Source of the DNA: Bryoerythrophyllum caledonicum
Lineage: Eukaryota > Streptophyta > Bryopsida > Pottiales > Pottiaceae
Direction of reading: 5' to 3'
NCBI GenBank assembly: GCA_963971425.1
Contig: OZ020525.1
Span: 1,550,001-1,614,000 of the forward strand
DNA length: 64,000 bases
Shown here: positions 31,327 to 64,000 of the stretch, piece by piece
How the letters are laid out: each line of letters starts with the position of its first letter
Numbering within the stretch: position 1 is the first letter of the stretch
Translations under genes and position numbers: made by a program
Notes under the pieces: model-generated
The model's database searches: none
The model's input: only the letters and a program-made list of their open reading frames with translations
What the model was told of the DNA's origin: nothing

Positions 31327-34300
31327 TCAATCCTCCTCTGAGTCGCTGTACTCTAAATCATCTACCGATGTGTCATCCTCTCTGAGGCGTTCTAATGTTG
31401 TGGCGACCACCTCTGGGGCTACTTCCACCGCACCAACCAGAATAGGTGTCTGTGCTATCGAATCCGAATCTAGGCTCGTAGATTTCAGTCCGGGAAAGTC
31501 ACACGCTCTACCCAATGATATGCATTGGACTTCATCCGAGAAGTGGTGTTTGGAGAATGACCGAGCTCCTCTCGGTTCTTTGCGCATCACAACTTCCCAT
31601 CCACGCTTCGCCAAGTCTGGTGCAAAAAAAACTTGTTCGATGTGGAGGGGAAAGGCAAATGACTGTGCAGAGTATGGGATCAATCTCTGAAAGTTAACGG
31701 TGCTGAAACCGTAATCGTCGCGCTTCATGGTGGCGCCATCTCCTCTCATGTTTGCAACCACCCAATTGCAATATAGGACCACCACCTCAAACTGTCCATA
31801 GTCCACTGATAGTATTTCCTCCACCCACCCCACATACTCCAACTGTGCAGCCCTAAGATTTGTATCCTTTGTACCCGCGCGACAAAGTTGACCAAAGGTA
31901 GCGGCTACTCCAGAGTCTGTGGTTGTGAGTTGCGCCTCTGCACTCCGCACCCGTAGGTGGTTTCCAAATGCATACATGGACCGATACGACTTGGCTTCGT
32001 CCGATGGAGGTACCATCAAGGCCAATACGTCGGTAGGGACCTGCTCGTCTCCATCTTGTACAGCTCGTAACACAGCCTTTGGAAACCAGACATGGAAATC
32101 TTCATCACACATCTCTGACGGGTAGGCTGTCCTACCCTTCCGCTTCTTGCGCCTGTACTCGTGTCGCTCCGCTTCACGACGTGCCATGTCATCTTCGTGT
32201 CGCCTGTAGGATAGAAGAGTTATTTATGGTCCAGTGCACCTTCACAAAATTGTCTAAGAGTAGAAGGTAATATGTAGCTGACTGTGGTCGGTCTTGGCAA
32301 CAACTACATCATTGGGTGCAGTCACAGCCAACAGTGAAGGCAAACAGTGATGTCACTAGAAGCAGACGTCAACATTTATGGGCAGTCATTGATATCACGA
32401 GGAGTCGTCGTAAACATCACTGAAGGTAGTCATGAATATCATCAACATCACTGGATACAGTTATACTAGGTATAGTCGCAGTCATATTCTACGTAAGCCA
32501 TAGTGATGTTAACTCACCTGCGCCAATCTTCCAATGGCGCCGCGTTATTCACCACGAACTCGTGAATCCATCCCCGAAGGTTAACTGACAATCTGCGTGG
32601 ACGCTCGTTGCCTTCAAGTATCTCGTCGTACATGGACGGGTCTTCTTTATCATCCCACACTCTTCGTGTAGTAGTCGTATACTCTTGCATATACTCGGTG
32701 CAAAATCCCAATGCTTGTACTACAGCATAGCCTTCAGCCATGCTGCCTTCTGGTTGACATCGATTTCGAACGTAGCCTTTGAGTGTCTTCAAATACCTCT
32801 CTATAGGGTACATCCATCGCGTATGCACGGGTCCACAAATTTCAATTTCCTCTACAAGGTGTATAACCAAGTGACTCATAATGTCAAAGAACGACGGCGG
32901 GAACTCCTTTTCCAACATGCATAAAACGATGGCCGCTTCGCATCTCATATCTTCTATTGCCTTGGGATCAATGGACTTAGCACATATCCGCCGAAATACC
33001 CGGCTCAACATTATTATTGCCGTACGAACTTCCTTGGCCATTGTAGTGCGCACACATAGTGGCAACACTTGCTGGAGAAGGACATGGTAGTCATGTGATT
33101 TCAGACCTTTGATACTCCCATCCATGCTAACACGCTTCTTTAGCTGCCCAACGTACTGAGATGGGGTTCGCAAGGAACGCACTTGGTTTACAAAGACCTG
33201 TCGCTCTTCTTTCGTAAGAACATACGATGAGCGAGGTAATATGACGCTGCCGGGTTTCTTACCTTGTACAGGCCATAGATGTTTGCGTATCCCCGCTTCC
33301 TTCATATCGAGGCGGGCTGCAAGGGTGTCCTTCTCTCCAAATATGGTCTTCATGATATTCTCAGCGATGTTTTTTTCACAGTGCATGACATCCAACGTGT
33401 GTTGGATTAGAAGATCCTGTACAGTGACTCCGGTCAGTCACAAATTAGATTCCATGAAGTACAGCAACAACTATATTTAGTCACATTCCACAGTATTTGA
33501 CTGCACATTGAGTCCTAAACATTAGTGCCAATGAAACTGATTATCACTATGCACAGTCATAATGTAGAGTCCACGCAACATAACATCACTACATACTGTC
33601 ATGTCACACTACAACAGTGCGTTAGACACACGTACTTTCCAATACGGAAGGTCAAAGAGAGATGTCCTTCTCTTTACTCCATGTTCATGTATAGGGTCTG
33701 GCATCTGTCCTCCTTCGTTTTCGCGGTTATTTCTTGTCCACTGTTGTCGCTCATTCGCGAAGTGCAATTGCTCTCGACCGCTCATCCTTCGTGGTGGAGG
33801 TCTCATGTTGGGTTGGCCATCAAAATTGGCCCTTTGTCGTCTCCATTGGTGCGCCATTGGCAAATGCCGTCTATGCCCAAGGTAGACATTCTTCTTCAGT
33901 GCCTTTGAGCGCCGAGTTACTACATTGGGGCCACACACGGTACACGCCTTATGTCCTTTTGTGACTTGGCCAGAAATCAATCCATATGCCGGGAAGTCGT
34001 TCACCGTCCACAATAACATGCCCCGGAGTTTGAATGTATTGTTGATAGAGTTTCTTTGTGATCCATCTACGCAATCGGTCCCTTTCCACAGCTCTTGTAG
34101 CTCTTCCATTAATGGTGCTAGGTACACATCCACATTTTTATCCGTCACGCTCTCTTTTCCGGGTATCAGTAACGTGAGCATCATGAAGAAGTTTTTGGTC
34201 ACTAGCCAAGGGGGAAGATTGTAGTTTAGCATGACCACGGGCCACGTTGAGTGGCTAAGGCTTTGGTTCCGAAACGGGTTAACACCATCTAGTGCCAAGC

Positions 34301-35210
34301 CTAGCCTAACATTACGTTCTTCATTTGCAAACTCAGGCCATCTATTATTCACGTGATTCCATGCCTTTGAGTCAACCACAGATCTCATAACCTTGTCATT
34401 GCTTTTTCCGCCTACGTGCCATTTCATGAGCTCTGCCAAACGTGTGCAACTGTACATTCTTCGCAAACGAGGGATCAATGGGAAGTGTCTCAATACTTTG
34501 ACAGGTATTGTGGTGGAGTTGTCTACATACCGGGATTTGTAGCAAACAGGGCACGCCGTTGCATCCTCTAAATCTTTCCGAAATAAACAGCACCCATCTC
34601 TACACGCATGTATAGAGTCGTAGGACAACCCCAATTTCATCAACATACACTTTGCCTCGTAAAATGTTTTCGGAAGTGTGTTGCCCTTGGGCAATATTGT
34701 CTCCCGTAATAACTTCAACAACTCGTCCACAAATTTGTTTGGTACGCCAAATGTGGTGCAACAAACAAGTAGCATGAGCGTGGAGGTGAGACGGTTGGAA
34801 GAGCTCCCTACATAAAGTGGAGTCTTCGCATCGCGTAATAGGATGTCCACGGCTATGCCGCTAGGGTCGTTCATGTTCATGGTTGTCCCTCTTGATTCCA
34901 TGGGGTTGTTGCGTTCCTCCGTCTCGTCATCGCTACCTTCGTTGTCACTCGGTACGAAGCCATCCTCCGGGCAGTGCGCAGCTTCAAGTACCACATCATC
35001 AACTCCGTCATCATGAGTTGGGATTGTCTCGCTCCCCCCTAAGTTGACATTGTCATACTTGTTGAAGCAATCTGCCACCATGCGCAAAACATCTACTTCT
35101 CCAACTTCTCCGCCGTCCAATGTATGATTAGACTCAGACTCGCTATCTTCACCATTGCGCTCTATATTTTGGACCAAATTCAGGGGGCTGTACTCATCCT
35201 GCAAATTCAT
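31327..35210 (-). CDS. TNP2-type CACTA transposase
   Basis: This is the catalytic (TNPD-like) transposase of the element. Three exons (35210-33636, 33416-32518, 32203-31327) splice in phase to 1,116 residues with no stop. Exon 1 has an acidic leader and then the transposase domain: WPVVMLNYNLPPWLVTKNFF, LLIPGKESVTDKNVDVYLAP, a DFPAYG segment, and an upstream Cys-rich stretch CRDGCCLFRKD...CPVC. The exon 1/2 junction reads LPYWK|DLLIQHTLDVMHCEKN, a conserved TNP2 sequence. The second part of exon 2 corresponds to the DUF4218-like region (SHLVIHLVEEIEICGPVHTR, then RYLKTLKGYVRNR). Exon 3 carries the DUF4216-like block (YVGWVEEILSVDYG, then DDYGFSTVNFQRLIPYSAQS) and an acidic tail. ATG 35210 gives MNLQDEYSP. 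Confidence 0.92.
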
Positions 35211-35444
35211 CCACGTGCATGACAAGTGTGTCCATGTGTTAAGTGTTGTTCACACAAAGAAGGTACTCATTGAAGACGTGCTGTGCAAAATATGACTGAC
35301 AGTAATCACATTACAGGAGTGAATAGTGACTGTTTGTAGTCATCTTGAAAACAACTTGACTGATACTAGTCATATTACATAGACATGCACCGATTGTAGT
35401 TCTGCCGTTCAGGCCTCAACTAGTCTTTCATTATATTTACTCAT

Positions 35445-36347
35445 TTACCACACAGTGCTCTGATGTAGGAAGTAATGCGCATAGAGTTCTTCTCCAGCCC
35501 TGATGTCCCTTGTTGCGATGGTAATCACATATCCCCATTCCGAAGTGTTCCACGGTTTAGGAAACATGCGAAACTCCCACACAACATTTCCTATCTCACT
35601 GCGCCCAATGGAACTATTAATGAATCCAGCGACATTCCCTTTCACTACATCTCCGTCAATGTACAAGTCCGACTCCGCACGCATCACGTACGACTTCATT
35701 CGAGGTTGTGCCTTGCTCAATATTTTGTATTCTGCCGAGGTGTATTGTGGTCCTACGAAAGGAAGCAGTTCCTCACCCTCTCTGGCGGGTTGCATTGCAA
35801 ATAGACCCCAACCCATGAAGCCAAATTTGGACACCTTCACTTCCCAATCTCTTTTCCAATATGAAAATCGTGTTAGCTTTGGAATGAGCCCGTCGCACCA
35901 TTGTCCGTCGTACACATCTGAACGCCACTTTTGCAAGCGACTGACTCTTGCGGATGTAGGTGTGGATATGGCGTGATCGGAGGATTTTTTTTGACTTAAG
36001 AACGTTGTCAGTGATTTTAAACATGCTGATCTGACAACGGGTCTCCACCGATCCTACATAATTAATGAACACAAACTTTTAAACCCTACAACAGTACATA
36101 GAACCACATCGCTTTAATTTAGAAGGACTGGTTGGTTGCAATCACTTACCAAGATCGATGCTGTAAAAACGGGGTCCCTTTTTCTACTACGAAGATGCTT
36201 CCGAATTGCGGCTCGATCAAGAACTTTCCCTCCTGCACATTCAGTGCATGGACATGGGTATTTTGTTAATCGCAAGGTATCCGCTTGAATCTCTTCCTCT
36301 TGCCATAATTGTAGATGCTTTAAGCATTGGAGCTCCCCTTCTTCCAT
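35445..36347 (-). CDS. SET-domain protein fused to a transposase-associated-like Cys segment
   Basis: The likely role is a lysine methyltransferase carried by the transposon. Two exons (36347-36150 and 36053-35445, joined in phase 0 at ATCTTG|gtaagt and tatgtag|GATCGG) encode 268 residues. Exon 1 contains CPCTEC and a following RKHL, like the transposase-associated domain found at the start of many CACTA transposases. The SET domain covers about residues 140-262. It has GWGLFA (147-152), IDGDVVKGNVAGFINSS at the usual NHS position, and IATRDIRAGEELYAHY at the place of the catalytic ELTYDY-type motif. No pre-SET or post-SET cysteines are seen. It lies 234 bp upstream of the transposase on the same strand. 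I tested joining it to the transposase by splicing, but the phases do not agree, so it appears to be a separate gene. Catalytic activity and substrate are unknown. Confidence 0.8.
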
Positions 36348-43635: not shown

Positions 43636-44899
43636 TCACTTCAGCAAGGTATTGCCAGGGTATCCTTCGGACTTCACTCCAGTAGGGTATTGCCAGGGTA
43701 TCTGCCAGGCTTCACTCCAGCAGGGTATCTTCTGGACTTCTGCTGACTGTGGCTGTCTGTAGCTGTCTGTGGCTGTCTGTGTCTATCTACAATTGTCTGT
43801 ATCGTCCGTAGCTGTTTGTAATGTTTTGTTGCCGCTTGATCAGCCACTGCCTGCTATCCTTCAACAAACTGTTGTCTTGCGCAACCAGTCAACAAGAGCC
43901 ACATGATTCAAACTTATGCATGGTCGCCAATGTTAAAGGGAGATTTCACCTAAAGGTTCAATGAACAATCGTCTCTACGCTCATTCAAACGGCACTTCAG
44001 GGCAATAAGACAAAAGTCCCGATCCGGACCTTTACTGGGTCTAAAACTCTAGAATCGATCTAGATCTAAATCTAGATCTGAATCTAGAGATAGTTAGAAT
44101 TGCGTTTCCGCTATTTTGCTTAAGTTTAACTCACAGATCTGAAGTTTCCGCACTCGATTACATCAAATCAGACCATACCCACAACAAATCCGGACTTGTT
44201 TCTAACTCCAACACACTAGATTTGATTAGAATATAGTAGATCAAGCTAGATCTATATGAGATCTAGGGTATTTAGGCTAGATCTACAATACCCACAACCA
44301 AGTTTCACCCCAAATGCTCTTCTAACAACAAGATCTACTCACACATTCACAATACTAACACAAACACACAATTGATAGTATCCAAGTCTTGCTTTACTTC
44401 CTCAAACCTCCATAAACCTCTTCCATACTTTATACAAGTCAAGATCCACACAATACATTCACTTCCTAGCTCTCTAATTCCACTACACACTCTAAGTCTA
44501 ACACACCAAAAGAGATCCACACACACTCACACACAAGAGAGAGAAGAGAAGAAGAGAAGAGAGTCCCCAAGTCCAAGAGGGTGGCTCTCTACCCCCTTCA
44601 AACCCTAATCTTCTCTAATGGATGAAAGGTGTCCGGATGGATGACATTCATGTCCGGACAGTTTCATCCGAAGTCCAGACAGTTTCATCCACTGTCATTG
44701 AGGACAGTTTCATCCACAGTCCGGATTCATCCATTGTTTTACTTTTTATCCATAACTACTTGGTAACATCAAAAAATTACTACCAAGACCTTACAATAAG
44801 CCGAAATCTCCGGTTAACAACACCGGATAGCGAGATTCTGTTGGGAGAACGGCCTTCTATTTTGCGTGTGGCCAGATAAGACTAGGCGTATAGTTCTTA
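43636..44899. other. Flank of the CACTA insertion: minisatellite end and unassigned DNA
   Basis: 43639-43745 continues the pre-insertion minisatellite. A CTGTCTGTGGCTGT-type run follows at about 43744-43820, and 44050-44110 holds overlapping AGATCT/TCTAGA palindromes (GATCTAGATCTAAATCTAGA). Around 44620-44730 the sequence GTCCGGACAGTTTCATCC recurs in imperfect copies. No gene is supported. Confidence 0.5.
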
Positions 44900-45242
44900 G
44901 GTCGGATCAGAGGGCTTCCTTGGTACGGCAGGTACACCAAGACCTTAGTCATTTTCGTGTGTGACGGACACATTCCATGTTGTGCAGCTAGTACTGGTGG
45001 ATCGACATGTATCAGTAGGTCGCCACTTATGTTTCTTGGTGTGAAGTCTGTGATCGGATCAGATCGAGCTTCAACACGTTGTCACCGCAGTTGCAGCCTT
45101 TGCTCACTATGGGTTTGGGCTATCGTTGATTTCTGGATTTTGCCGGGCCGCTTGTTGTCACCCCACGTGGAGCCAAGTACGTGTTGATGATGGTGGAGCA
45201 CATTAACAAGTGGACTAAGCTTGTGGCACTACCCAACGACGC
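44900..45242 (+). pseudogene. Ty3/gypsy integrase fragment, N-terminal part
   Basis: Translation of the plus strand shows the zinc-binding segment (an HFRVRRTH-like region, then YWWIDMYQ and CEVCDRIR), followed by LQPLLTMGLGYR, a stop codon, and FLDFAGPLVVTPRGAKYVLM with the first catalytic Asp, then KWTKLVALPNDA. Frameshifts and stops are present. The reading continues at 53726 after an 8.5-kb interruption. No reverse transcriptase is seen upstream, so the retroelement is truncated on its 5' side. Confidence 0.82.
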
Positions 45243-45305
45243 TAGGGTGTGAGCCATGAGCCATGAGCCATGAGCCATGAGCGGAGATTTCATGAGCGGT
45301 GAGCT
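45243..45305. repeat. Left terminal ATGAGCC array
   Basis: Four direct GAGCCAT units (GAGCCATGAGCCATGAGCCA) follow the TAGGG end, then a GGAGATTTC spacer and CATGAGCGGTGAGC. The complementary array at the right end has units varying between ATGAGC and GTGAGCG. Confidence 0.85.
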
Positions 45306-46102
45306 CTGATTTACCAAAAATAGGTTTATTTTTCTAAAAATAATGTTATCCGTGTAAGAAAAAATTGTGATTAAAATATTTTTAGTAAATTTTAAGTGCC
45401 TATAACCGTGCAATTAGAATAGACTACAATATTTCAGGTCCATTTGCAATCAAATTCAAGTAGTGTTGGGTCTTCCTATTTCGCAAAGTTGAAGGTGTAT
45501 TGAAGAGATTGTAGGCACTACAAGTTTAGGACCTAGAGAGGATTTTTATACATACGATACTCTTATTTAGTGTATGTACAGTATATATAACGATGGTAGA
45601 TAATTAAGTTGGTGAAGTATTGTAAAAGTAATGGAGACTTATACTAACAACATTCAACAACAATCCATATGAGTTGGGCTATAAATGGTATTGATTCATA
45701 TTGCAATGTCCTTATTTTTGAAGCTACACATCATATAAGCTCCAAGACACCACTCTCCAGCACTTTCTTGATCTCGTTGAAGCTTAAGGTAGCAGCATGG
45801 ACAAAAGCATTGTCCTCAAAATCAAGCTTGCATACCACTCGAAAAATATAGTAGAGATGTTTTGCAATGGTACCAAGTACCTCTCTTCTTGGATTAAACC
45901 ACCATGTCCTTGAAGTCGCCGCAAGAGCAATTTGGGAGAGGGCCTATAGTAAGGCGATATTTACTCGTCTTATGCCCCTTCTTTGACTGTAGTACAATGA
46001 TGCATCCGAGGGCGGAGTAGAGAAGAATTGAGATGGAGTTGATGCGGACGTTGAGGTTGTCCGCTGATGCCCATCAATTTTTTGCTTTACGGAAACCTTT
46101 GC

Positions 46103-48152
46103 CTAACGACGGATACGGCAGCCTTCATGCAATATTGGGTAAGAGTCGGCATCTACAAGTGCAGGCACGGATGCAGCTTGCACAATAGGATTGAGAGCAC
46201 CTCCAAAGAGCCGCCTTGGTGACACTTCCCGTCGCTCTTCAAGTTGAAATCCTGCCTCTTCTAGCTTGAGAATCTCAGCCTTGGCAAGGTTGGTGTCCTT
46301 CACCACAGACCATATATCTAGAACAAGCGGATGGTGATTCACCTACTTCCGCTTTGTTCCCTTACGCACCTTTCAATGTCATCCGGGCAATGGAAGAACT
46401 CGGTAACTTGGTCCTTTAAGAGTCTACGAACATGGAGGAGCCCGGTGTATGTAGGAGCAGGAGTGTTTTTCCCCAAACACACAATCTTCTTGGTGCACGT
46501 CTTACCCGTCCTAGCTTGTTTAGCATGACAACACTTACCGGAAGTCTTCGGTAGCCTTGCAATATGCCATTTATGTATGTCACACTTAGATTCTTGAACA
46601 CTCGTAACATGCTTTACTTCCCTAGGTGCTTAAGATGGAGACAACGATGGAGATACAAGCTTTACATCGTCCAAAGATGAAGATGGAGAGGTTGGAGGCA
46701 ACGTTGTCGCTAGTGAACAATTGTCTTGGCGTCCCTTCCTGGACCTTGTAGAAGCCTTTGGACGGGAGAAGTTTATATATCATGGCGATGACTATCAAGG
46801 TTTAAACCAAATGGTCCATCAAGCTTTCGTTTGCTGGAGCCAAACACCTCTTCTCCTTCAAAGTGAGGTGTACGTGTGCACCACTCCTTGGCCTTCGGTA
46901 TGCTCTCCATGGCTTCAATCACCTTCTCGTGTTTACCGGTCCTTTGGGCAAGTCTCATTTGCAACTCATGCTTGGAAGGGTCGGTCCCTGATCGCCCTCT
47001 TTTTAAAAAATGATAATAGTTCGTGCATTGCATAAACGGGAAAACAAAGTTGTCCACCGTAGCATCGTATAGGTCATTTCCTCTATTCCCTGATTGTTGA
47101 AACCAACGATTCTGGGCTGTCTCCGCCAAATTACATGATGGCATTTTGGCCATCTCTTCGTCTATAAGATTCAGTAACACAAATCACAACGTCACTTATA
47201 TGGTTGTTTGGACTGTAAATTGAAATGAAATTATAATCAAATATAATACAACTGATACCAATTCCATAAATGCTCCCCATTGGCAGTAGCGGTAATGCCA
47301 AAAGGTAAGCCACTGGTCAAGTTGTCTGAGGGCCTCATCATTTTGGGCACCACGAGATTGCCACAAAGCTCCAATAGCAAGGTAACGAATCGCAGAGTTT
47401 GCCAAATTCTTGGCATACTTATATTGCTTGCCTAGAAGACGGTGCTGGTCTTGGAACTTGCTCTTCATATACTTGTCCGTGTGGAGGTTCATGGATGTTG
47501 TCCAATGAAGTAGACATGTGCGTTCTCAATCTACCATAACCTCTTGGAGATTACCTCAACCATAGACCGTCCGAACAACATTCCAATTTGCTCCTGCGCT
47601 ATCCGCCATAAAAACTTTGAAGTTGACATTGTCAACCCCGTGCCTCTCCATAACTTTGTTGATGCTCCTCCACATGATGCATTGGGCTTCTGTGTCTTCA
47701 GATTGCATGTCGCAAACTGCAATAGTCATAACTCTGCAGTACCGAGAGTCGTACACATGGCAACCCATGGTGGTCCAATTCCTGACCCGCTTTACATGAT
47801 CAAACATGATCCATGTGTCTTGTAGGTCTCCACCAGGCTACATACGCAAAACTAGATCGACTCCTGAACCAGGGCCTATCTCGCACATCTTAAAGACAAA
47901 AATTTTGTCCTTGTCGCCTCCTTAACCCGGAAACATGTTGCGCTAGACAAATGGCCAAGTTGTACAACCTCTCACTGTGCGGATACCGTCCATTGTGCTT
48001 GTACGTCCCACTTGCTTGAAGGATGAAATGGTATTTTTGACATTTGGAGATGCCAAGTTAGTATACTTCTCCATCATGTCCTTCATGTCTTCCATAGTCA
48101 TAGTCATTTGAATTTGATGGAATTCTAGGACTGAAATGTGCACCGATACCAT
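46103..48152 (-). pseudogene. Decayed transposase gene of an uncharacterised plant family
   Basis: Minus-strand pieces can be followed in order: KNTISSFKQVGRTSTMDGIR near 48000, then a stretch with stops (KDKIFVFKMCEIG), the strongest block RVRNWTTMGCHVYDSRYCRV with TIAVCDMQSEDTEAQCIMWR and FMADSAGANWNVVRTVYG (47807-47556), an LHTDKYMKSKFQDQH exon (47490-47280), and DEEMAKMPSCNLAETAQNRW with EEVFGSSKRKLDGP (47180-46780). The MADSAGANW block with its Asp looks like part of a DDE catalytic core, and similar proteins are widespread in land plants. I know no superfamily name for it; MULE-like is a guess. Stops and frameshifts make this copy inactive. Confidence 0.6.
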
Positions 48153-49334
48153 TTTGTTATGTAGTAGCTGAGCTCAATTAGTGGAGCGGCGTCAATGGCA
48201 ATGGCTGAAGACAAGGTTGCAGAAGGATCTGAGGTGCCTCTTCATGACCTAACCAAGCTGGTTCGAGATTTTGTTTATGACCATGATTGCTTGGATTTAA
48301 TAGGTCTCAGTGTCGAGACAATCATTTTGGTCGAAATTGTATTCAGAGATTGTCTTCAAAATTTGCATCGTTATTGCCTATTTTGGATGTTTGGATTAGT
48401 TTGTCATGGCCCCACAGTCTGTTGTTCTCGATTGCCTTCTTATACTCGCGGCTCATGTTGTTTTTCTCCTTGGATGTTAATAGATTTGATGTTTAAAGTC
48501 AATGTGTTAGTTTGCAATCTCTAGAATTTTTAGATGTTGACTTTGAGGGTCTCGGGGCCGAGACACTCTTTCTCTTGAAAACTTTTTAAGAACATTAAAT
48601 TTTGACCCTAAAGAACCATGTGTGACTTGGAAGGACAATATAGATTTTTGGCACGTTCCTAAAATTTGATTTATTTTTATTTCTAGCTTGTCCTTGATAA
48701 CAACGGTATGTGATGAGAACCTTCAGATTGGCTGTTTGGATTATTATTCTTGAGTGTATCAAGTTCACAAAGGAATATAATGTGAAATGGCAATTTTTGT
48801 ATCTCCACTCCATGCACACTTGTTTCCTCCATGCTACACCCCTTCTCTATCTCTAAAAACTGGTGTATTGGGAACTAACACTATGCTCAAGATAATGGTT
48901 ATAGATTTATACCTTGTGTATTGCAAAGTGAAATATAAGAAATCTAAACCTCTCAACGCAAAGAAGAAATGAACCTATTTCTTGACTTCAAACACTATAA
49001 TCTTTTAATCTGTGCGGTCAATGTTTATGAAATTTTTTTGAGTAGATTATTTCAAAAGTCATAATTGAGATCCTACCGTCAAAAACATAATAAGGTTTTG
49101 TTTCCTTCCTAACTTATTGCACTAAAACCAACAATTTTGAAGTGTTTTTAATGTGAATTGTCACAGTCCTTTAGGGGTTAATCAAATGACCAAGTATATT
49201 GATACTAATATTGGTGATCACTTCCATGGATCTTAGTGGCGAGACATTCTTTTTTGTCAGAATGTTTTAGAGAGATTGTCATAGAATCTTGTTAGGAACC
49301 TTCTTGATTTCAGTTCTTGAATGGTCATTACAAG

Positions 49335-49790
49335 GTGTCTCGGTGCCAAGATCATTTGATTTCTATGAATTATTTTGTGGTAGGTTCTAGTCATTTGTTC
49401 TCAATCTTGATGATTTCAAATTCTTAGAGCTCTATATGAGGTATCTCGGTGCCGAGATCATTTTATTATTATGAATTATTTTGTGGTAGGTCCTAGTCAT
49501 TTGTTGTCAAGCTCGATGATTTCAAATTCTTAGAGCTCAATATGAGGTATCTCGGTGCCGAGATCATTTTATTACTATGAATTATTTTGTGGTAGGTCCT
49601 AGTCATTTGTTGTCAAGCTCGATGATTTCAAATTCTTAGAGCTCAATATGAGGTATCTCGGTGCCGAGATCATTTTATTATTATGAATTATTTTGTGGTA
49701 CGTCCTAGTCATTTGTTGTCACTTTTGATGATTTCAAATTCATAGAGCTTAATATGAAGTGTCTCGGTGCCAAGACCCTAATTTTTACGA
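49335..49790. repeat. 106-bp tandem repeat containing the TCTCGGTGCCGAGA palindrome
   Basis: Four full units and part of a fifth start at 49335, 49441, 49547, 49653 and 49759, each exactly 106 bp apart. Each begins with GTRTCTCGGTGCC. The palindrome CTCGGTGCCGAG is perfect in the central three units (49445, 49551, 49657) and mutated (GTGCCAAG) in the first and last. Confidence 0.95.
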
Positions 49791-50454
49791 GAATTTATTG
49801 TGAACTCTATGTGCATTGGTCAGTTTAGGGAACCACATGACAAATTATTTATTTTTCCTTAGAATGTGTTACGTCCACAGTGGAAATTACCTAGGCATTG
49901 CACGGGTGTCACCAGGGTATTACATAGGTATCCCATATTCAAATCTCGTAACTTTCGTCAAACCTTGGGGCAATAACAACAGTAAAATTTAGCTACACGT
50001 AAACCGATGTTAGAATACCATAGTATACGATGATAAGTGTATAGTGTAATACGAAGAGCTCACGATATAATACGGCGATATAATACGTATATCTAAATTT
50101 TACCGCCTAGGTGATTTCCATCCACAGTGGAAAATCACCTAGGCATTGCCATCCAAAGTATCTCTGAATAATACCAAAGAATGATACCAATTGTTGTTCA
50201 ATAGTCATATTCTCGTCCAATCGTCATACTCTCGTCCAACCTAACAGTTCTCGTCCAACCTTATCAGGTTCATGAACCTCAACACCTCACACTGGAATCA
50301 CTGCATTCAATCTTCACAAGCTCAATGATCTCAAACCGTGCTTCCTCCGTTGCACCAGGGCAGAGCCGTGACTTTCAATCATGAATCGAAGTTGCATACT
50401 TTTGCTTACATTGTTTAGAAGGTCTCGGTTACATTGGTGACAGTCCCTTACTAT

Positions 50455-50978
50455 CTCGGTGCCGAGGTATGTTGATACAGGTGGTATTGATCTTCGTGGG
50501 TCGTCGTGACTTGGTTGGTGACGGCCCTTTACTATCTCGGTGCCGAGGTACTTTCAAAACATGTTTTAGATAACACTAGTACGAAAGTGGGAAAAATAAC
50601 CGCCCTACATTTTTTGGAATTTTTGGGCGTGTAATACACTGTTGGAAGCGCATTTTCAAGACCTTTCCAATGGTGTATTACACTTCCAAAACTTCTAAGA
50701 ACTGAAGAAGTTATGAGCAAAAAACTGCGGCAGCCCAAACCATGAACAATGTAATAGAATTCTGGCAGCGTGGTCAAAAGAACGGCAACATGAAAATGAA
50801 TGCGGTTTTTTTTTCCACTTTTGTACTAGTGTAAGTGTGTATGGAGAGGTTGGATCGGAAGCGACGCAGTGCCGAGCCACATCAATCTTCAGCACTTCGG
50901 TTGTCACCGAGATATATTGGTTGGATTGAGTTTGTTGCGGTGCTGTGAAGAGCACTTTTGTACTGTCTCGGTGCCGAG
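50455..50978. repeat. Further CTCGGTGCCGAG palindromes
   Basis: Perfect 12-bp palindromes at 50455-50466, 50536-50547 and 50967-50978, outside the 106-bp array. A variant CTCGGGGCCGAG lies at about 48552. All fall between the 5' ends of the transposase and methyltransferase-like genes of the nested element, so they may be binding sites in its divergent control region. Confidence 0.75.
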
Positions 50979-51019
50979 ACCCTTGTTCAAGTCAAAACAA
51001 CCGCGTGATCTATAGCCAC

Positions 51020-52855
51020 CTGTATTGGATGCCCCCAAAGTTGCTACGGCACAAATAACAACTCAGAAAGGGAAGAGAAAGGCAACAACAACAACAAAGG
51101 CTACAAAGGCAACAAAGTCATCCAAGTCATCCAAGTCATCCAAGGCATCTAAAGCTTCAAAGGTAACATAGACTTCTACTGCAACTATTATTCCAGTCAG
51201 GTGATTGCATCACCTAATTTATTGAATTTAGTAGATTCATCAATTCCTTCTTAGGCCACTAATGCCAACCAAGTTTATTAAACCAATATTTAGGCCAAGA
51301 AAAATGTCAATACTACCTGTATTGCTTCTTCCTCTATGGTCTCTTCAACAAAAATTCTTGTTGAAAATCTTTCAATTTTCACATTGATGGAATCTGGAAG
51401 CAATCATCCTCTTATGAAGAAGATGCATGATTTTGTTCTAACGGTATGTAGCATCATTCATAATCATTTACATTGCTATAACTAGTATTTAATTTGTTAT
51501 AATTTTCTAGAGTAATTTATTGCCTTCTTGAGAGTGATAATTTTTTGGAGTAGTTAATTGATGTTTGTTATATTTTATATGTGTAGGTTGGAAAGGGTCA
51601 AGGAACTCAGGTGCGTTTTGCATTGTGCCCTCGTGATGGATTTGATCTCATCATTATTGATATTCTCGATGGTTTACCGGTTCCAAAGATTTCATTTGTT
51701 ACGAATGACATTCTGCAGTGGAATACATATAATGTGTCTGAATTGGAAGCTATCTTCGAATTTGCTCATTACTATTTGCAAAGTCATGCATCTTTACTTA
51801 TCTTTATGTCTGAATCAATGACCATTTGAGGAGACGTACGTACATATGCAAAGACTTATGACTTCAAAATCATCAAAGCTTGGTGGGGCATCAATGAGCT
51901 TCAATTGACATCTCCAACAAACTAGTCAATGTTGGTGTCTTTCCCTATCTCTACTCTTTCCATGTTATTTTCCCACTTATTTGTTTTAACAACAAGACTG
52001 TTTTTGGGTAGACACGACGTTTTTACATCCTCCTCCTTGTTCATGATTCGCATCAAGTTCTCAGTTCTCCTTTCAACAAGATCAACCACTCTTGGATGGC
52101 AATACCAACCTTGGCAAGGATGATGTTCTTTTCAACTTTGTATCAGTAACATCACAACTTGTGAATGGAATTGTTCCTTAGAGAGGAGGCCAGGAGAAAG
52201 ATCCAATTTTATTACAAATTTTAATTCAAGTTCTGACTAAGCCAGGTGGTGTCATTCTTGATGCCTATGCTTCTTCAGGTAATTTTGATACATTTGATGT
52301 TTAAATCTTTGATGATATAGAGTTCCATTAATATTTTCCTTTTAAATTTAGGAGCCTCAATTCACGCTTGCTACCGCTTAAGTCGCCATTTGGTTGTTTT
52401 TTAGACGGATCGTGTTATTTTTGAGGCCATCCTCGCACCACTTCGAGATGCATCACTTCGAGACGCGCCACCATTGGTAGAGATTGTTGTGTCTTCACAA
52501 GCGGATATTGATTTGGAGAGGGATGATATTTCTGTCCGTCATGTTGCAAAACAAAACCGTTTGAGAAAATAACTTGTGAATTATTATTTTCTTGCATTCT
52601 TTTAAATATTTTAAAGTTCAGCGTTGACATTATTGTTTGACTCATTGTAGATTGATAGCGGACGCCGAAGCACCTCCTAAACCGTTTCTACTTCCTTCGC
52701 ATATAGAAGACTTAGCTCAATTATTAGCTACTTTACCATCTCCTAGTCCATCGTATGGGACACGTCGTTATGACCCTCGTATTGTTCAATTTGTGAACAT
52801 TGAAGCGATTGAGGCTAGCGAGGATAGTAATGATAGTTTTAATTCTACTTTCTAA
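51020..52855 (+). pseudogene. Decayed spliced gene resembling N6/N4 amino-methyltransferases
   Basis: Exon-like pieces in order: a Lys/Ser/Thr-rich leader ending at about 51160 (TKATKATKSSKSSKSSKASK); SIFTLMESGSNHPLMKKMHD to 51450; VGKGQGTQVRFALCPRDG with FDLIIIDILDG (51589-51829); a decayed middle with stops; EKDPILLQILIQVLTKPGGV with ILDAYASSG at 52200-52279, donor gtaatt; then ASIHACYRLSRHLVVF, a stop in place of a likely Glu, and TDRVIFEAILAPL from 52352. The order (DLII-type motif first, D-x-x-x-S-G S-adenosylmethionine motif near the C terminus) resembles beta-class DNA amino-methyltransferases. The DPPY-type catalytic motif is not intact (DILDG). Stops and frameshifts show that this copy is dead. 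Confidence 0.5.
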
Positions 52856-53718
52856 TTTTGCTATAGTCATGTACTTCTTCATTTCAAAACTTTCTTTGTT
52901 CACTTTGTACGTGTCTTTTACATTGCAGTGTTCCTTTCATATGTAGTACTCAGTTTCATGTTCTTGTCTTCCTAACTTGTAACTTGTATTCATTATATTA
53001 TCCATTTTATTTTCTATACTTTAATTTTTCAATAGATATTAGCATAGCTTGTGAAAGATAAATAACAAATATTATAATTTAAAATAAAAACTAAGTTATA
53101 TGATTAGTTTGTAAACTCTAGACAGCATTCTATTAGTATCAGATTTCTCAGACTCTGGAAATACTACAATTAATATAGACATAAATCAAAGCATTTCAAA
53201 TACATACCAATTATTGTCTTTTAAAAAATGATATAGGTTAGAGAGAAATAGATAATTTCATGAACGTAACAAAAAACAATTTGGAAAGAATAAACAATAA
53301 TGAATAATTTATTTTTTGGTCAAATTGATTTATATAATAAAAGGCAAGGCCATAATAGAAAAAATAAGTAACAAGTATATTCAAAAATATAAGAATGAAA
53401 TGGTAAAAACATATATCACAGCACCTTATAATTGATAGCACTAAAAGGAGTTGTCAAAATACGGGGACCAATGTGAGACTAAAATGAGAATAGATACTAA
53501 CACAATGAAATTAGAAGCATATTTACACGGATATAGGCATTACATCATATATAGGTTGTACAAATTTTCCACGGATATAGACTTTCATACTGCTATTTTT
53601 CCACAGTTCTCCGATCATATACAAAAAAAAATAGGGTATTTTTTTGTGACTATCATTGCTCATAGCTCACCGCTCACCGCTCACCACTCATCGCTCATGG
53701 CTCATAGCTCATGCCCTA

Positions 53719-54716
53719 GCAATCCTGTGGCACTACCACAAGACTCCTCGGAGTTGGCGGCCATGTCATTCCTTGACCGGATGCTGGAACGTTTTTGAGC
53801 CCCAGCTGAGGTGTTGACTAACCAAGGGCGTGAGTTCTTTGGTGCTTTCAAGGCTTTGTGTACCAAAGCTTTGGTTGACCACCGGACCACTTCTCGGGAT
53901 CATCCGGAAGCAGACGGTTTGGCGGAGCGTGTGGTTCAGACGGTTAAGCGTGGACTACGGAAGTATGGATTACTTCAGGGTGGCCACCGTGATTGGGATC
54001 TCATGATACCATGGATCGCCATGCAATACCGGTTTAGCCGGCAGACCTCTTTGGCCGCTTTCAGTCCGTATCGGTTGTTGTACGGATGGGAGCCAATTCT
54101 ACCCAATTTTATACGGGAGAAATTTGCCCCAGTTGTGGACTTCAATGATCCAGAGGTCTGGATCCAGTGTCTATGTGATCGGACGGAGTTCTTCAAGCGG
54201 GCCATGCCAATGGCCATGGAGAATTTATCCATCGCTCAGCATCGCGACACGTTACCGTACGCTCGCATTCACAATGGCGCTTACCGACCTTAGTTGCGGC
54301 GTTTCTTCACTGGAGATTACGTTTATCTGCAGCGTGAGGCGCCTACGATGTTGGACGTCAAGGCCGGGCGCACCATTCTTCGTGTGAAGGATGTGTTGCC
54401 CAGTGGCATCTTGTTGCTGGAAGGCAAAGATGGCCGGGAGTGTCGGGAGTACTCCAAAAATTGCACGCCCTGCCATTTGCCATTGATGGCTTCGTGCATC
54501 TAGAGTTGGCCGTTGTGCCACAAGGTCTTCCGTGTTTTGTGAGTGGTGAGAAGAAGGTTGCGGCTACCATGTTATTATGCGACCGTTGTCAGCGTGGATG
54601 GCATATGGCTTGCTTGACACCGCCCCTCTCTACTCTACCGTCTGGGGATTGGACTTGCTCTCGTTGTCAAAGGTCTTCGAGCGACGTTTCAGCCAATGAA
54701 ACGGCTTGAATTCCTC
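53719..54716 (+). pseudogene. Ty3/gypsy integrase, C-terminal part, ending in a PHD finger
   Basis: The integrase core resumes with VALPQDSSELAAMSFLDRML, a stop codon, then APAEVLTNQGREFFGAFKAL, where the usual catalytic LTDQG is LTNQG (Asp to Asn). HPEADGLAERVVQTVKRGLR supplies the catalytic Glu, and YRFSRQTSLAAFSPYRLLYG is the typical end of the core. After a stop at 54291 come an SH3/chromo-like segment (GDYVYLQREAPTMLDVKAGR, then VLPSGILLLEGKDGRECREY) and, in a shifted frame, a PHD finger: CFVSGEKKV, MLLCDRCQRGWHMACLTPPL, SGDWTCSRC. The first CxxC pair is CxxS here. The element is inactive. Confidence 0.82.
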
Positions 54717-54915
54717 GTGGCTTGTCACTGTGTGGTGCGTTGCCATCCAGTTGGAGTTTCCTGGTTTCAATTCAGGGATAGGCAACGTGGAGATTGACCA
54801 AGAGATTGGCAACAAAGTTGCTTAAGGCGATAAAAGATGGGGCTCACATTGCACCCGGCCTACCCTCTCTTTGTAACTTCTCCATATGCTTATTGATTCG
54901 GCGACGGGCAACATT

Positions 54916-55463
54916 GTTTTAGTGTATGTTTTTTGTTTATTTGATGTTGATTAGGAGTCTCGATCTATTGTGGTTATCGATCTTTCTTTACACGACAGCT
55001 GTCACGGGATGTGGCATCAAGGGCCACTCCGTATCGCTGTGTTTTAGCGTAGGTTAGTTGTTACTAATCTATGGGTGTTTAGGGACGTATGGCGGCGCAC
55101 CCAATTCATCCATGGATGACTTTCATCCATTTAGGATTGCACCTGTGTACGTATAGTGTCGCATTTGTCCTTGACTTGACGTCTTTGTCAAGTCAAGCTT
55201 TGTGAGTGAGTTAGAGAGTGTTGGTGAGTTCCTTCGCTTGTAAATGATGTGATTTCATTTGTGAAGGCTCCGCATTCTTCTACTGCTACTTGCACTCGTT
55301 GATTCTGCCTTTGTGGTGTGCGAGACGCTTGACTACTTAGTGACTTGCTATCTATTCCTTGAGGGTGTATTACATATACTAGTTTTAGTGTATGTTTTTT
55401 GTTTATTTGATGTTGGTTATGACTCTCAATCTGTTGTGGTTATTGATCTTTCTTTATACGACA
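54916..55463. repeat. 82-bp direct repeats 466 bp apart
   Basis: 54916-54997 and 55382-55463 share GTTTTAGTGTATGTTTTTTG, a GATCT-T-TCTTTA block and an ACGACA end at roughly 90 percent identity. They may be pieces of a long terminal repeat of the gypsy element or a local duplication. The segment between them starts near TGTCACGGGATGTGGCAT. Confidence 0.65.
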
Positions 55464-58837: not shown

Positions 58838-59660
58838 TGACCTATCTAGACTCTGCAATCTACCCGACTCCGTAACTGTGGTACCCTACCCGGCTCCGTA
58901 ACTGTGGTACCCTACCCGGCTCCATACCTACGGTACCCTACCCGGCCATACTTATACCTTGCCCTTACTGGTACCCTACTCTATACCCGCTTAGTGAGAT
59001 GACACCCAACTTGTACACGATATCTGGGTCTGATACCCTTATCCAGACCTGATACCCGGTTTTCAGCTTGTACCCGGACTAGTAGTTGGTATCCGGTTTG
59101 AGTTGATATCCAACATTTGGGTAGATATCCGGTGTTGGATCTGATACCCTGTTATCATACTGGTACCCTGATCTATTTGCTACTTGTACTCGGTCTTCTG
59201 GTTTATGGTTTATACCCTACTGTTGCTCTATACCCGGATATGATATAATACCCGATCCTCGCAGCTCATACCCGGCATACCGATTTATATCCGGACCGTT
59301 GATTGGTATTCGGCAGTGGTAATGTTACCCGGTTTTGTCCATGCTACCCAGTCTTTGTGCTGAGAACCGGCCCTTGTGACTAATACCCGTATCCGCATTT
59401 ATACCCGATACCCGGTTCAGGTGTTAGTACCCGGTTCAGTGGTTGAGACTGGGCAGGAGTGGTACCCGAGTTGCTTGGTTTATACCCGGCCCCTTGGTTG
59501 TTGACTGGCTATGGGGTTGATGACATGCAATCGGATTGATAACCGACAGTCGGGTTGATGACCGGCTGTGGGGGTTGATAACCAAAATTGGGACTGATAA
59601 CCGGTAGTAAGTAACACCCGCTTGGTTGCAGATACACGGGTTTATGGTATGTGCCCAGAT
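58838..59660. repeat. Diffuse TACCCGG-type repeat region
   Basis: More than thirty irregular copies of TACCCGG, TATACCCGG or GATACCCG over about 800 bp. The left end has three closer copies of a 26-bp unit (GGTACCCTACCCGGCTCCGT). The origin is unclear; it lies between the La fragment and the gag region of the last retroelement, where a long terminal repeat or leader might be expected. Confidence 0.75.
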
Positions 59661-59889: not shown

Positions 59890-61620
59890 AAAGTGGAAGC
59901 TTGAAAGCTTGCAGGGACATTGTTATCATTGTTCAAGGGGTTCGAAGGGTATTCGGCACTCAAATTATGGACCATGGAGGGAAGAGGTAAGTCCAAGAAA
60001 CCCGAGAAGACTAGTGGGCCGAAGGTGGAAATTGATGGGCAGGTGTTGGACACCTTGATCGATTGTTTGCAGAGCCTACGAGTGAAAGGCTCCCCCTCCA
60101 CAACAAGTGGTAGCCACGGGGACTTTGAGCTCTCTCCCATAGTTCGATCTCGTACAGGGCCTCAGAATTTGTGTTAACCGGGCACGAAAGTGTTGAGCAC
60201 GGAATCGGTGAAGTATTGGACTTCATTAGGTGGGGTGCAGAAGGTCCGCTCACTTCGGGTGAAGGAGGGAATTCCAGCACCTTTATGCCGCGCTCATGGG
60301 CGAGTATTTGGTGATTGGAGGAAAGGCAGTAAACCTTTGAAATTCTAGGTCAAGGTATGGTGTAGAGGTCGAGGATTTCTCTTCAGGCATCCAACTACCC
60401 ACATTTTCCCTTATTTTCACCGAGTTCGAGAGCAAAGGATTTTTATTCCACACTACTTGGCAGTGGGAGGTTAATTCGTCGCAAGAGCGTGCCTCGAGTG
60501 TGTGGGATATTCTTACCTTAGAGTTGCTGGATTGGAAAGTGACACCTACTATCTATGCCCCAGAGATGAAAGGAACCCATGAAGCTTGGCAGTTGTTCGA
60601 GTAGATCGCGAAACTAGCAATCTAGAGAACTAGAAGGGTCCCGGGTTTACACCTTGAAACACCCTCTTCTCAGTAGATGCTAGTGAGAAAGTGTTGACAG
60701 AAAATCTTGGTCAATTAGAAGAGGCAGAGGAGAGTGCTTTGCCACTGGTAGAAGAGGAGGAATTTCTTGAAAGCCCACAAGTGAGTGTTCAGGTTCCAGT
60801 TTTACCTACAAAGCCTTACCAATCATACTTTGATTGGGAGGAGATGGCTTCACCATATGGAGGTGAAGAATAAGGGGTACAAAGATTTTTGGGTGCCACG
60901 GACACCATCAAAGTCGATGACTTCAAGAGGGAGTTCACCATGTGGTATGAACTCCAGAAGTCCCGTAATCCCAACTTCAATCCGTACATGGTGTGCAGAG
61001 CATTGTTTGGGTGTCTGGAGGGAGCTCCATTGGCGAACTACGGGGTGTTCAAGGTAGCTCATTTCACCGAAATCATGGCCTGCAGAGACTTCTACGCACC
61101 GAACTACGTGGATGTGTTCGGTGGAGCACCGAGGGTGACAACACCACTCTCGTCCAAAGAGAAGATGGAGAAAGGCACGAGCATAATAGAGGATGTGGTG
61201 CAGCCAGAGGGACTGGTTAATCATCCACCTCTATTTAATGCCACTGTGGATTTTTTTGTGCAACTTCACAGAGATTATCAAGGACAAAGGGCGGATAAGA
61301 TGAAGGCCCTTCGTTCCTTCACATCTGGAGGTGACGAGTCTCTGAGAGAGGCTCATGCGAGATTAAGGAGACTAATCTCAGCCACTCACGGAGTAACAGA
61401 ACAACAGACAATACAACATTGGTACAATATCTTGGACAAGGAGTTGAAGACCTTGGTTCGCAATGAGGCGTTGCGATTGTGAGTACCGATGACACTACGG
61501 TTTGTTTTTGAGACTTTGGAGCAGATTGAGATAAATTTACTGGAAGAGAAGGACGTAGTGGGATTTTTCAAACGTGAAGAGAAGGTCCCGGAGAAGGTTA
61601 AGGAGGCCAAGGAGGCTATC
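59890..61620 (+). pseudogene. Gag region of the DNMT-bearing retroelement
   Basis: Successive plus-strand frames read MEGRGKSKKPEKTSGPKVEI (59974), later LVEEEEFLESPQVSVQVPVL (60750-60810), and then the longest intact piece, 60889-61482, with DDFKREFTMWYELQKSRNPN, a DFFVQLHRDYQG segment and ETLEQIEINLLEEKD further on. The helical, Trp/Leu-rich capsid-like part followed by a zinc knuckle supports a gag role. Stops and frameshifts occur at several points (for example about 60174 and 60872). The protein is not assignable to a named retroelement lineage. Confidence 0.65.
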
Positions 61621-63055
61621 TCTTAGTATAATGCAGACTCTGGTGCCTTGTGTTTCGAATGTGGGAAGCCAGGACATCAGAAGAAGGATTGCAAGGAAGG
61701 TAAGACTTCCACACCTCAGATTGGAGGTTTTTGCTTGGATTGTGGTGCCAAGGGGCCTGTGGAGGTTAGCTGCATCCAGAATTAAAGCCCACGGGGAGCA
61801 AGGGAGCTAAAGGAGTCCAAGACCAGTGGAGGGGAGAAGAAGAGCTGGAAAGCCAAATTCGCAAAATTGGAGGCTAAAATGGAAGCAATGAGTGCGAACA
61901 CTACTGTGGTAGGTGGCAACCCTCAGGTTACTCCCAGTTTCCATGCTGGAGGCGATTTTAGCTCCGTGGATGATGAATTTAGAGACTTTATGTTGAGTGA
62001 CATGACACTTGCCATCAGGGATGGTATACATGAGGCCTATGCTCTCACATAGAGCCATACTCCAGTTTCTAAGGGTATTCTACGTGGTGCTACTCCAACT
62101 TTGGATCCTCACCATGGAAAGGATAACCGACAAGCAAGGTTGCCATAATCCTTCACGTTAGAAGAGATGGTGCCCACGTCGTCTATCGTGCCTCCACCAT
62201 GACCAGTCGCGTCATCCATACGAGCCTCACCACGAGTTGGAGGACTCACAGGAGGTTCGGAAGCACTTATGGAGGCAACAACTTCCGTGTGGGAAGCCTC
62301 TTTATTTTCTGCTAAGATAGTGTCACAAGATGGCTTCAGTGTGGCAGAGGTTTTTAAGAGTGTAGCCTCAATGTATGAGTTGGACAACTCCCCGGGGGTT
62401 AATGCGTTGAAGACGGAGATAATCATTGCAGAGGAGAGCTAGAGTGACAACGTGGAGGGGCTGCTTTCAGCAGCCATGCGTGTGAGGACAATAGCCGCTA
62501 GACCTGCGATTGAGAGATCATCCATTATCTCTGGTGTGGTTGTGGTTGATAATTCCCAAGGTATTTTCCATCTCGTTGAGCCTAAGGAGAAGGTTTTTGT
62601 ACCTTGACGTGTACTTCTGGATTCGGGAGCTCAACCTTTGATGCTGGGAGCGTTTGCTATTGAAAGGTTGGATTTAACTGGGGATATTTTGGAGAAGTGT
62701 CCTTAGACCATTAGCACATCTATGGAGGGTACAGAGCACGCTACAGGGATGACAAGGGCTGAGTTGGTGCTACAACTGAATCAAAGTGATGTGACGGATG
62801 CTAGTTCCATGAAGGAGAAGGCAATAGTCACGGAGGCCAAGTCATATGATGTCTTGGTGGGCTCGGCGTTGCTATATCCAATGGGATTCACCTTGGACTT
62901 CTGGGAGGAGTCAGCAAGCTGTAGACCAGGATGGCAATCAGAAGATGGGCGGAAGGCTCAGCTGCCAGCTCGATTTGTTCGAGTTCTTCCTGGCAATTTT
63001 GTTGACGTGTTTACCTTCTCCGGATGTATGAATATGAAACCTTCATGGTTTTAGG
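61621..63055 (+). pseudogene. Nucleocapsid zinc knuckle and retropepsin region
   Basis: CFECGKPGHQKKDC at about 61650-61691 is a perfect CCHC knuckle (C-x2-C-x4-H-x4-C). A second, imperfect CxxC (FCLDCGAKG) follows. After a linker with stops, VLLDSGAQPLMLG (about 62612-62650) is the aspartic-protease active site (DSGA), and YDVLVGSALLYPMGFTLDFW (about 62845-62905) matches the C-terminal part of the fold, where hydrophobic-x-G is expected. Stop codons interrupt the frame at several places (for example 62606 and 62704). Confidence 0.78.
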
Positions 63056-63189: not shown

Positions 63190-64000
63190 AGGGAGGCCGC
63201 GGAGTTAGCAGTGGAAGAGGCATGGCATCATTCTATGCCACCACGGATGCAACAGGAGCCTGGAGTTGACCAAGACCTAGGGCCTCCATTAGACACTGCG
63301 ACCATCCATTGGAAGGCACTAACAGATGGCATCGTGTTGTTGGAGCTATTTGGAGGAATAAACACAGGATTGGCATATATTTTACAAGCTGGGATAAAAG
63401 TTAAGCGCTACATTTACGTGGATGTGGATTAAGCAGCAAGACATGTGGCCAAACGTCACACACGGAGACTCATGACACAATTTCCAGAATTGTTGGCCAC
63501 TAGTGCCATCAAAACTTCTTTCTCTACAGTTGTGAGCGATACTTCCTTGCTATCACAGGATGACATTCACCGTGTAGGTCATGTGGATCTTGTCATTGCA
63601 GGATGGCCTTGCCAAGGCATGTCTATGGCAGGCAATCAGAACTCCCGTTAAAGGACTCCCGTTCTTCCAGGTTCTTTGACATGATTCGAGTATTGCGGTT
63701 GCTTCAGACTTCTCAGAGGCAACTGCCTTGTTATATTGTAGAGAACGTGCCAGTTGTGAGCAATTTGAGGTCTAGGACACTAGATAGTATGCATAGAATC
63801 CATCAGACTCTGGGTTTGTCAGTGTTAATTGATGCGACTGCAGTAGGGTCAAGGGCACATCGACCACGCTTGTGGTGGACGAATCTGGCACCAACAAAGT
63901 TGCTACAGTCCGCGGTGGGTTGCATTAAACGCCCAGATATGTATGTGAGTGATATTTTGGATCCTCACAAGACACTACGGCACGTGTATCACGATGACTA
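63190..64000 (+). pseudogene. Cytosine-C5 DNA methyltransferase domain of a retroelement (runs off the window)
   Basis: The domain follows the protease in the same element. Motifs appear in the canonical order: LLELFGGINTGLAYILQAG (motif I, AdoMet binding), YVDVD then a TAA where the next residue should be, VDLVIAGWPCQGMSMAGNQ (motif IV with the catalytic PC), a frameshift at about 63650, CYIVENVP (motif VI, ENV) and GSRAHRPRLWWTN (motif VIII, R-x-R). The order I-IV-VI-VIII excludes the rearranged DRM type. Motifs IX-X and any reverse transcriptase lie beyond the right edge. One stop and one frameshift in about 270 codons show decay, but every visible catalytic motif is preserved. Confidence 0.85.

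What the first reader, a model, noticed from the sequence alone, without database searches (positions are those of the whole stretch)
63190..64000. Retroelement with a cytosine-C5 DNA methyltransferase downstream of its protease
Seen: gag, CCHC knuckle, DSGA protease and then the ordered C5-methyltransferase motifs (FGG, PCQ, ENV, R-x-R) on one strand over about 4 kb. Established: methyltransferase capture by retrotransposons has been described in some algae and dinoflagellates, and I am not aware of a well-known land-plant case. Inference: an element that could methylate its own or host DNA. This copy is dead, so active relatives may exist elsewhere in the genome.
Basis: partly seen in the sequence, partly recalled or inferred. 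Interest (0 to 1): 0.9.

Follow-up and report, generated by a model that had tools for sequence, protein, structure and literature searches.

The report
Moss retrotransposon carrying a DNA methyltransferase
A decayed retrotransposon in a moss genome carries a DNA-methylating enzyme behind its protease, and relatives in liverworts and in soil-crust DNA show that the enzyme is a regular part of such elements, extending to land plants something reported so far from algae and dinoflagellates.

The parts
60844..61539 (+). Gag of the finding's element (decayed)
   Evidence: GAG profile 60934-61539 E 1e-52; P0052 residue 1 aligns at 60844; Pfam Retrotrans_gag E 0.001, below its cut-off
61651..61692 (+). 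CCHC zinc knuckle
   Evidence: Pfam zf-CCHC 27.6 bits against cut-off 20.8; position
62599..62979 (+). retroviral-type aspartic protease, DSGA motif within 62611-62646
   Evidence: PRO profile E 5.3e-57; no Pfam match for this decayed copy; the relatives P0059 and P0058 match Asp_protease_2 in that region, P0058 above its cut-off, P0059 just below
63313..64000 (+). DNMT3-type C5 cytosine methyltransferase, motifs I, IV, VI, VIII in native order, frameshift near 63649, cut by the window end
   Evidence: Pfam DNA_methylase 1.1e-9; PDB best match DNMT3A 8.6e-9; 64-70% identity to the nine best protein rows, 49-52% to the next nine
44820..45233 (+). relic of a second element (L003 type): integrase zinc-binding part
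   Evidence: 83% nt identity to L003 5249-5662; 80% aa to L003 ORF2
53727..54914 (+). same relic: integrase core, C-terminus and PHD finger, then 3' untranslated part
   Evidence: 85.7% nt identity to L003 5652-6839; 84-86% aa
54914..55463 (+). same relic: pieces of the putative LTR start (a 78% match and a second, short 88% match)
   Evidence: matches to L003 6971-7420 and 6949-7054; direct repeat pair D4
45234..53726 (.). about 8.5-kb insertion that splits the relic's integrase, with 47-nt imperfect inverted ends
   Evidence: gap in the L003 match; inverted arms 45241-45287 and 53674-53720, 83% complementary; 12-nt direct repeat at the junctions, read by eye

Best explanation
It is the dead 5' half of a Ty3/gypsy retrotransposon of a lineage found in mosses and liverworts that carries a DNMT3-type methyltransferase as a regular domain. 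Shown: Gag-CCHC-protease-DNMT in one reading frame; in relatives RT-RNase H (Marchantia) or RT-RNase H-integrase-PHD (L003) behind it; in L003 a single TAG stop, followed by CAATCA, between DNMT and RT in the same frame. Inferred: most translation ends at that stop, so the DNMT is made at Gag level, is packed with Gag into the virus-like particle, is freed by the element's protease, and methylates the element's double-stranded cDNA de novo (probably at CG) before integration; occasional read-through gives the polymerase part. The PHD finger would read histone H3 and steer insertion. The likely gain is that the cDNA enters the nucleus marked like resident heterochromatin, so that it is not treated as foreign and the new copy settles quietly. 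Identity about 0.95, mechanism about 0.4; the number below is for the whole.
Against: No enzyme activity, expression, read-through or packaging was tested. RT/IN of the finding's own copy lie outside the window. L003 is one assembled metagenome contig, filed under a cyanobacterial MAG; its moss-type origin is inferred from 83-86% nt identity to the relic, and that relic keeps no DNMT. No dN/dS could be computed; constraint is read from protein identity among sequences held in a protein database, which favours open frames. The DNMT is less conserved than RT and RNase H between L003 and Marchantia P0057 (44% over 233 residues against 68% and 71%, P0057's DNMT being incomplete), and its lead over Gag is small or absent in closer pairs (P0018/P0059: Gag 55, Pro 62, DNMT 60; L003/P0018: 90, 91, 91). 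Six of 79 domains lack one or more of the four catalytic residues. The charophyte relative's DNMT gave no methylation in yeast, which its authors call inconclusive.
Confidence: 0.6

Rival explanations
1. The methyltransferase is a host DNMT3 pseudogene or a chance neighbour of a gag-pro fragment.
For: The window copy is broken and cut off, so by itself it does not prove linkage.
Against: One collinear alignment through Gag, Pro and DNMT to single proteins; 91 of 101 DNMT-matching homologues carry another retroelement domain; L003 has it between Pro and RT.
Confidence: 0.02
2. The enzyme serves self-restraint: element-encoded methylation of its own LTRs in trans lowers copy number and harm to the host.
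For: Same anatomy; slower retrotransposition to the host's benefit is listed among possible roles in PMC5890265 (section 11). Catalytic residues kept in 73 of 79 domains.
Against: Selection for self-restraint in a multicopy element should be weak (general reasoning); nothing here measures LTR methylation.
Confidence: 0.15
3. The enzyme acts on the host genome or on other invaders (for instance DNA viruses) rather than on the element's cDNA.
For: An antiviral role is proposed in PMC6338049 (passages read).
Against: Encoded with Gag and protease ahead of the stop, which predicts packaging with the cDNA.
Confidence: 0.12
4. The enzyme methylates RNA, or acts by binding only.
For: An RNA role is suggested for a LINE DNMT in PMC5890265.
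Against: Best matches by sequence and fold are DNMT3A/3B.
Confidence: 0.06

Closest known systems
KnitGypsy-Dnmt3 of the charophyte Klebsormidium nitens (de Mendoza et al. 2018, PMC5890265; abstract, passages and sections 9, 10, 11, 15 seen)
   Same: LTR Gypsy element with a captured, non-rearranged DNMT3 catalytic domain; key residues kept.
   Different: That paper places the DNMT in the Pol polyprotein ORF and describes DIRS-like repeats, in a charophyte. In L003 it lies with Gag and protease ahead of a stop, the integrase ends in a PHD finger, and the named hosts here are mosses and liverworts. No K. nitens protein was among my hits, so descent from a common element is untested.
SymbioDIRS-Dnmt3 of Symbiodinium (same paper)
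   Same: Retroelement-encoded DNMT3; shown there to methylate CG de novo in yeast.
   Different: DIRS class in a dinoflagellate; the paper treats the charophyte case as an independent acquisition.
Ty3/gypsy elements without a methyltransferase
   Same: RT-RH-IN order and sequence in L003 (Ty3-G match 6.7e-100).
   Different: Extra DNMT domain and PHD finger. That mosses carry chromodomain Gypsy clades is known to me here only from a title in the reference list of PMC6338049.
Host plant DNMT3 and DRM
   Same: DNMT3-type catalytic domain.
   Different: DRM has rearranged motifs; this has the native order. Host DNMT3 sequences of plants were not fetched, so no tree includes them.

Membership tests
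Ty3/gypsy LTR retrotransposon | Gag with CCHC knuckle and aspartic protease | tested here: met
   Window: (Gag and protease by profiles built here, CCHC by Pfam); relatives:
Ty3/gypsy LTR retrotransposon | Order PR-RT-RH-IN with Ty3-type RT | tested here: inconclusive
   Not visible for the window copy (cut off). Present in relative L003: PR 1548-1925, RT 3783-4385, RH 4536-4925, H2C2 5301-5492, IN 5541-5972; Ty3-G 6.7e-100
Ty3/gypsy LTR retrotransposon | Long terminal repeats and target-site duplication | tested here: inconclusive
   No LTR pair for this copy among the repeats found from 40 to 64 kb; primer-site patterns gave no match. L003 has 127-nt identical ends, as expected from a collapsed LTR element or a circle; its LTR limits were not proved
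DNMT3 family of C5 methyltransferases | Motifs I, IV (PCQ), VI (ENV), VIII (RxR) in native order | tested here: met
   Window positions; L003 model residues 17-342 align to DNMT3A 630-909
DNMT3 family of C5 methyltransferases | Closer to DNMT3 than to other C5 methyltransferase families | tested here: met
   Only against solved structures: DNMT3A 8.6e-9, DRM2 2.3e-6, HhaI 2.5e-4; L003: DNMT3A 5.2e-8, HaeIII 1.7e-5, HhaI 4.3e-5, DRM2 0.075; fold Z DNMT3B 28.9, HhaI 24.5, DNMT1 22.8. No tree with host DNMT families was made
DRM (rearranged plant de novo methyltransferase) | Catalytic motifs rearranged (motif I after motif VI and later ones; order recalled) | tested here: not met
   Order I, IV, VI, VIII on one strand in the window
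KnitGypsy-Dnmt3 | DNMT in the Pol polyprotein ORF | tested here: not met
   In relative L003 the DNMT shares the ORF with Gag and protease and a TAG stop parts it from RT, same frame. If the stop is read through, the difference is one of degree. Feature taken from PMC5890265 section 9
KnitGypsy-Dnmt3 | Sequence descent from the same element lineage | not tested

The most novel reading that the evidence does not exclude
Bryophytes and green algae share an old lineage of PHD-gypsy elements that carry both a DNA-methylation writer and a histone reader, and in the land-plant branch the writer sits on the Gag side of a leaky stop so that it is made in bulk and enters every particle: retroelements that bring their own epigenetic state with them, pre-methylating their cDNA before insertion.
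Probability: 0.3. Interest if true: 0.82.

Novelty: new variant of a known kind. Interest (0 to 1): 0.62.

Why it matters
[quoted passage not shown] Moss and liverwort genomes have them, including Marchantia polymorpha, a genetic model. That makes the open question of why a retroelement should carry the enzyme used to silence retroelements testable in a tractable plant. Surveys that count plant DNMT3 genes by domain may also count transposon copies.

Tried and rejected
Host pseudogene beside gag-pro: rejected (see rivals). DRM-type enzyme: rejected on motif order. Chance motifs: rejected.

CpG decay as a mark of methylation of the copy: o/e 0.54, but 6 of 61 overlapping like-sized windows are at or below that, one of them the finding's own region, so no claim. 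Transitions of the relic against L003: C-to-T or G-to-A at 35 of 250 CG, 17 of 159 CHG and 60 of 644 CHH sites, a mild CG excess; direction not polarised.

Searches that gave nothing of use: Rfam 0 matches; tRNA 0 (bacterial settings); primer-site patterns from 40 kb to the window end, none printed; viral contigs with P0005, none; viral contigs with A2, 2 weak matches of 27-30% over part of the domain, L001 and L002, not pursued. NCBIfam added only a sub-cut-off dcm match for L003 ORF1 and P0013 and an IS481-type integrase match for L003 ORF2. PADLOC and PHROGs were not used. PHD fingers in gypsy integrases of algae: paper search empty.

DNMT tree: 88 rows = 75 database proteins and L003 with a placed layout, plus 11 unplaced database proteins and the window; 15 of the 103 DNMT-matching rows were dropped for length. 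No host DNMT families; midpoint drawn. The branch between the two layouts has 91/72 support, not starred. P0100 (DNMT-RT-RH-IN-PHD), counted with layout A, is a very long branch and sits alone at the root; P0086 is long too. One capture with a later move, and two captures, cannot be told apart.

Full report
What was checked. The last 4 kb of the window were read in all forward frames. In one frame, with 14 stops from 60844 and a frame change near 63649, they encode Gag, a CCHC knuckle, a protease with VLLDSGAQPLML, and a C5-methyltransferase with motifs I (LLELFGGINTG), IV (AGWPCQGMS), VI (IVENVP) and VIII (RAHRPRLWWTNL). Motif names are recalled. Over 925 codons this frame has 13 stops against 45 and 50 in the two others.

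The host. ORF 18239-20029 is a plant SCD2 coiled-coil protein: 92% identical to Ceratodon purpureus, 83% to Physcomitrium patens, at most 67% to Sphagnum; the best row named as a non-bryophyte is 55% over 84% of the query (Cryptomeria); the top row (95%) is a sequence without an organism name (best 120 of 1596 listed). So the window comes from a moss, most likely a Bryopsida; Ceratodon is in Dicranidae. The species is not identified.

Linkage to a retroelement. Two protein searches (51 and 64 rows, 102 distinct proteins; one search scored only the 8000 candidates sharing most words) were scanned with eight profiles built here. 101 match the DNMT profile (P0051 does not). Of these 101, 91 also hold a Gag, Pro, RT, RH, H2C2 or IN match in the same predicted protein; 45 hold protease, 28 Gag and protease, 26 RT, 40 IN. 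By layout 47 are Pro-DNMT or DNMT-RT (A), 43 are RH-DNMT or DNMT-IN (B), 11 are unplaced. The 10 with the DNMT profile alone are 437-594 aa long. Catalytic residues were read off an alignment of 79 near-complete domains (78 database proteins and L003; the window's cut domain is not among them): Cys in 77, Glu in 78, the two Arg in 77 and 77, all four in 73. A first, cruder pattern count had 64 of 79.

Named hosts. Mp_4g09160 (P0013, 1278 aa) runs through Gag-CCHC-Pro-DNMT. P0054 and P0057 (Marchantia) go on into RT and RNase H. The Sphagnum model P0068 holds Gag, Pro, broken-up DNMT matches, the start of RT and an integrase core. These are annotated models, not checked against genome DNA here.

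A relative with open frames. The one genome-contig scan gave L003, 9285 bp, filed under an uncultured Synechococcales MAG. It holds an open frame 3-3491 with part of Gag, CCHC, protease 1548-1925 and DNMT 2313-3206; an open frame 3492-6635 with RT, RNase H, integrase zinc finger and core, and a PHD finger at 6456-6593; and an open frame 8582-9283 with the start of Gag. That the sample is a biocrust is inferred from the isolate name. The first two frames are in phase: one TAG followed by CAATCA parts them. TAG-CAR-YYA is, from memory, the tobacco-mosaic-virus type of leaky stop. Seven of 24 database proteins whose ends I printed stop at the same place (ALSAT plus one residue), all of the L003 clade; the others end elsewhere or run on. 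The contig's ends repeat 127 nt exactly, a usual sign of a circular path in assembly; for an LTR element this most simply means two collapsed LTRs, though a real circle cannot be excluded. That it is moss-type is my inference from eukaryotic domains and from the window: 44820-45233 and 53727-54914 match it at 83% and 85.7% nt identity. So the same moss window holds a 3' relic of the L003 family (integrase, PHD, putative LTR start), split by an insertion of about 8.5 kb and ending about 5.4 kb upstream of the finding's Gag. The relic keeps no RT or DNMT that tblastn could find.

Relationships. In a tree of 88 DNMT domains the window groups with seven JGI metagenome proteins (8 rows, 100/97), next with P0010 (100/98), then with the liverwort clade (89/93, below the starring limit), apart from the L003 clade; all lie on the Pro-DNMT side of a branch (91/72, not starred) that separates the two layouts. 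A PHD finger is present in L003, in P0100 and in 29 of 43 B members; for the Marchantia and Sphagnum proteins, which end before that point, it is unknown. So either one capture and a later move, or two captures into related gypsy elements. Without host DNMT3 sequences this stays open. Conservation: P0013 against P0018, Gag 26%, Pro 48%, DNMT 49%; in closer pairs the three are nearly equal; L003 against P0057, DNMT 44% but RT 68% and RNase H 71%.

How it may work. Shown: reading frame, order, catalytic residues, predicted fold, and the stop between DNMT and RT in L003. Inferred: with a leaky stop the DNMT is made at Gag level and RT at a fraction of it, so the enzyme would be packed with Gag beside the nascent cDNA, and the protease would free it; DNMT3-type enzymes methylate unmodified DNA, and a retroelement DNMT3 was shown to do so at CG in yeast (PMC5890265 section 10). 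The PHD finger's best solved relatives include PHF12, UHRF1, CHD4, KDM5A/B, PHF21A and AIRE; that several of these read H3 tails unmodified at K4 or R2 is recalled, and a like role here is a guess. The likely gain is camouflage and quiet settlement of the new copy; self-restraint and action on other DNA are live rivals.

What is known. DNMT capture by retroelements was reported in dinoflagellates and the charophyte K. nitens (PMC5890265: abstract, passages, sections 9, 10, 11, 15). A 2025 survey repeats this for streptophytes and dinoflagellates (PMC12344493: passages and section 5). [quoted passage not shown] Passages of PMC6453930, PMC10952607, PMC9033089 and PMC10538959 showed nothing on retroelement DNMTs in bryophytes. 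Ten paper searches listed no title or abstract start that reports a land-plant case; some listings were partial (20 of 46, 5 of 4,656), other papers were seen as listings only, and the library lacks most subscription journals and all preprints. This is no proof of absence.

Verdict. A real, decayed member of a bryophyte lineage of methyltransferase-bearing gypsy elements: the kind is known; the hosts, the place ahead of a leaky-type stop and the PHD integrase appear new. Interest 0.62, because the precedent exists and the function is untested.

Noticed in passing
window 44820-45233 and 53727-55463: 3' relic of an L003-type element (integrase, PHD, putative LTR start), 78-88% nt identical in pieces to a biocrust contig.
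   Followed up: yes
L003 3489-3506: In-frame TAG followed by CAATCA between the Gag-Pro-DNMT and RT-RH-IN-PHD parts; fits a leaky stop of tobacco-mosaic-virus type (context recalled).
   Followed up: partly
window 45234-53726: Insertion of about 8.5 kb in the relic's integrase with 47-nt imperfect inverted ends and a 12-nt direct repeat at the junctions; looks like a DNA transposon, perhaps of Mutator type (type is a guess).
   Followed up: partly
L003 1-9285: A retrotransposon contig with moss-type relatives is filed as part of a cyanobacterial MAG (CADCWO010000201.1); P0021 and P0102 are similar retroelement proteins filed under bacterial MAGs.
   Followed up: partly
homologues of layout B: Second layout with DNMT between RNase H and integrase, nearly all without an organism name; 29 of 43 members carry the PHD finger.
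   Followed up: partly
window 32517-35249: Large tnp2-type transposase (Pfam Transposase_21, 1.4e-72, and DUF4218, 1.3e-37) with long open frames on the - strand.
   Followed up: no
window 35448-36053: SET-domain ORF (Pfam SET, 5.2e-11) next to the tnp2-type transposase on the same strand, possibly a captured gene.
   Followed up: no
window 58840-59640: Imperfect repeats rich in TACCCGG ahead of the Gag frame; may belong to the element's 5' LTR or leader.
   Followed up: no
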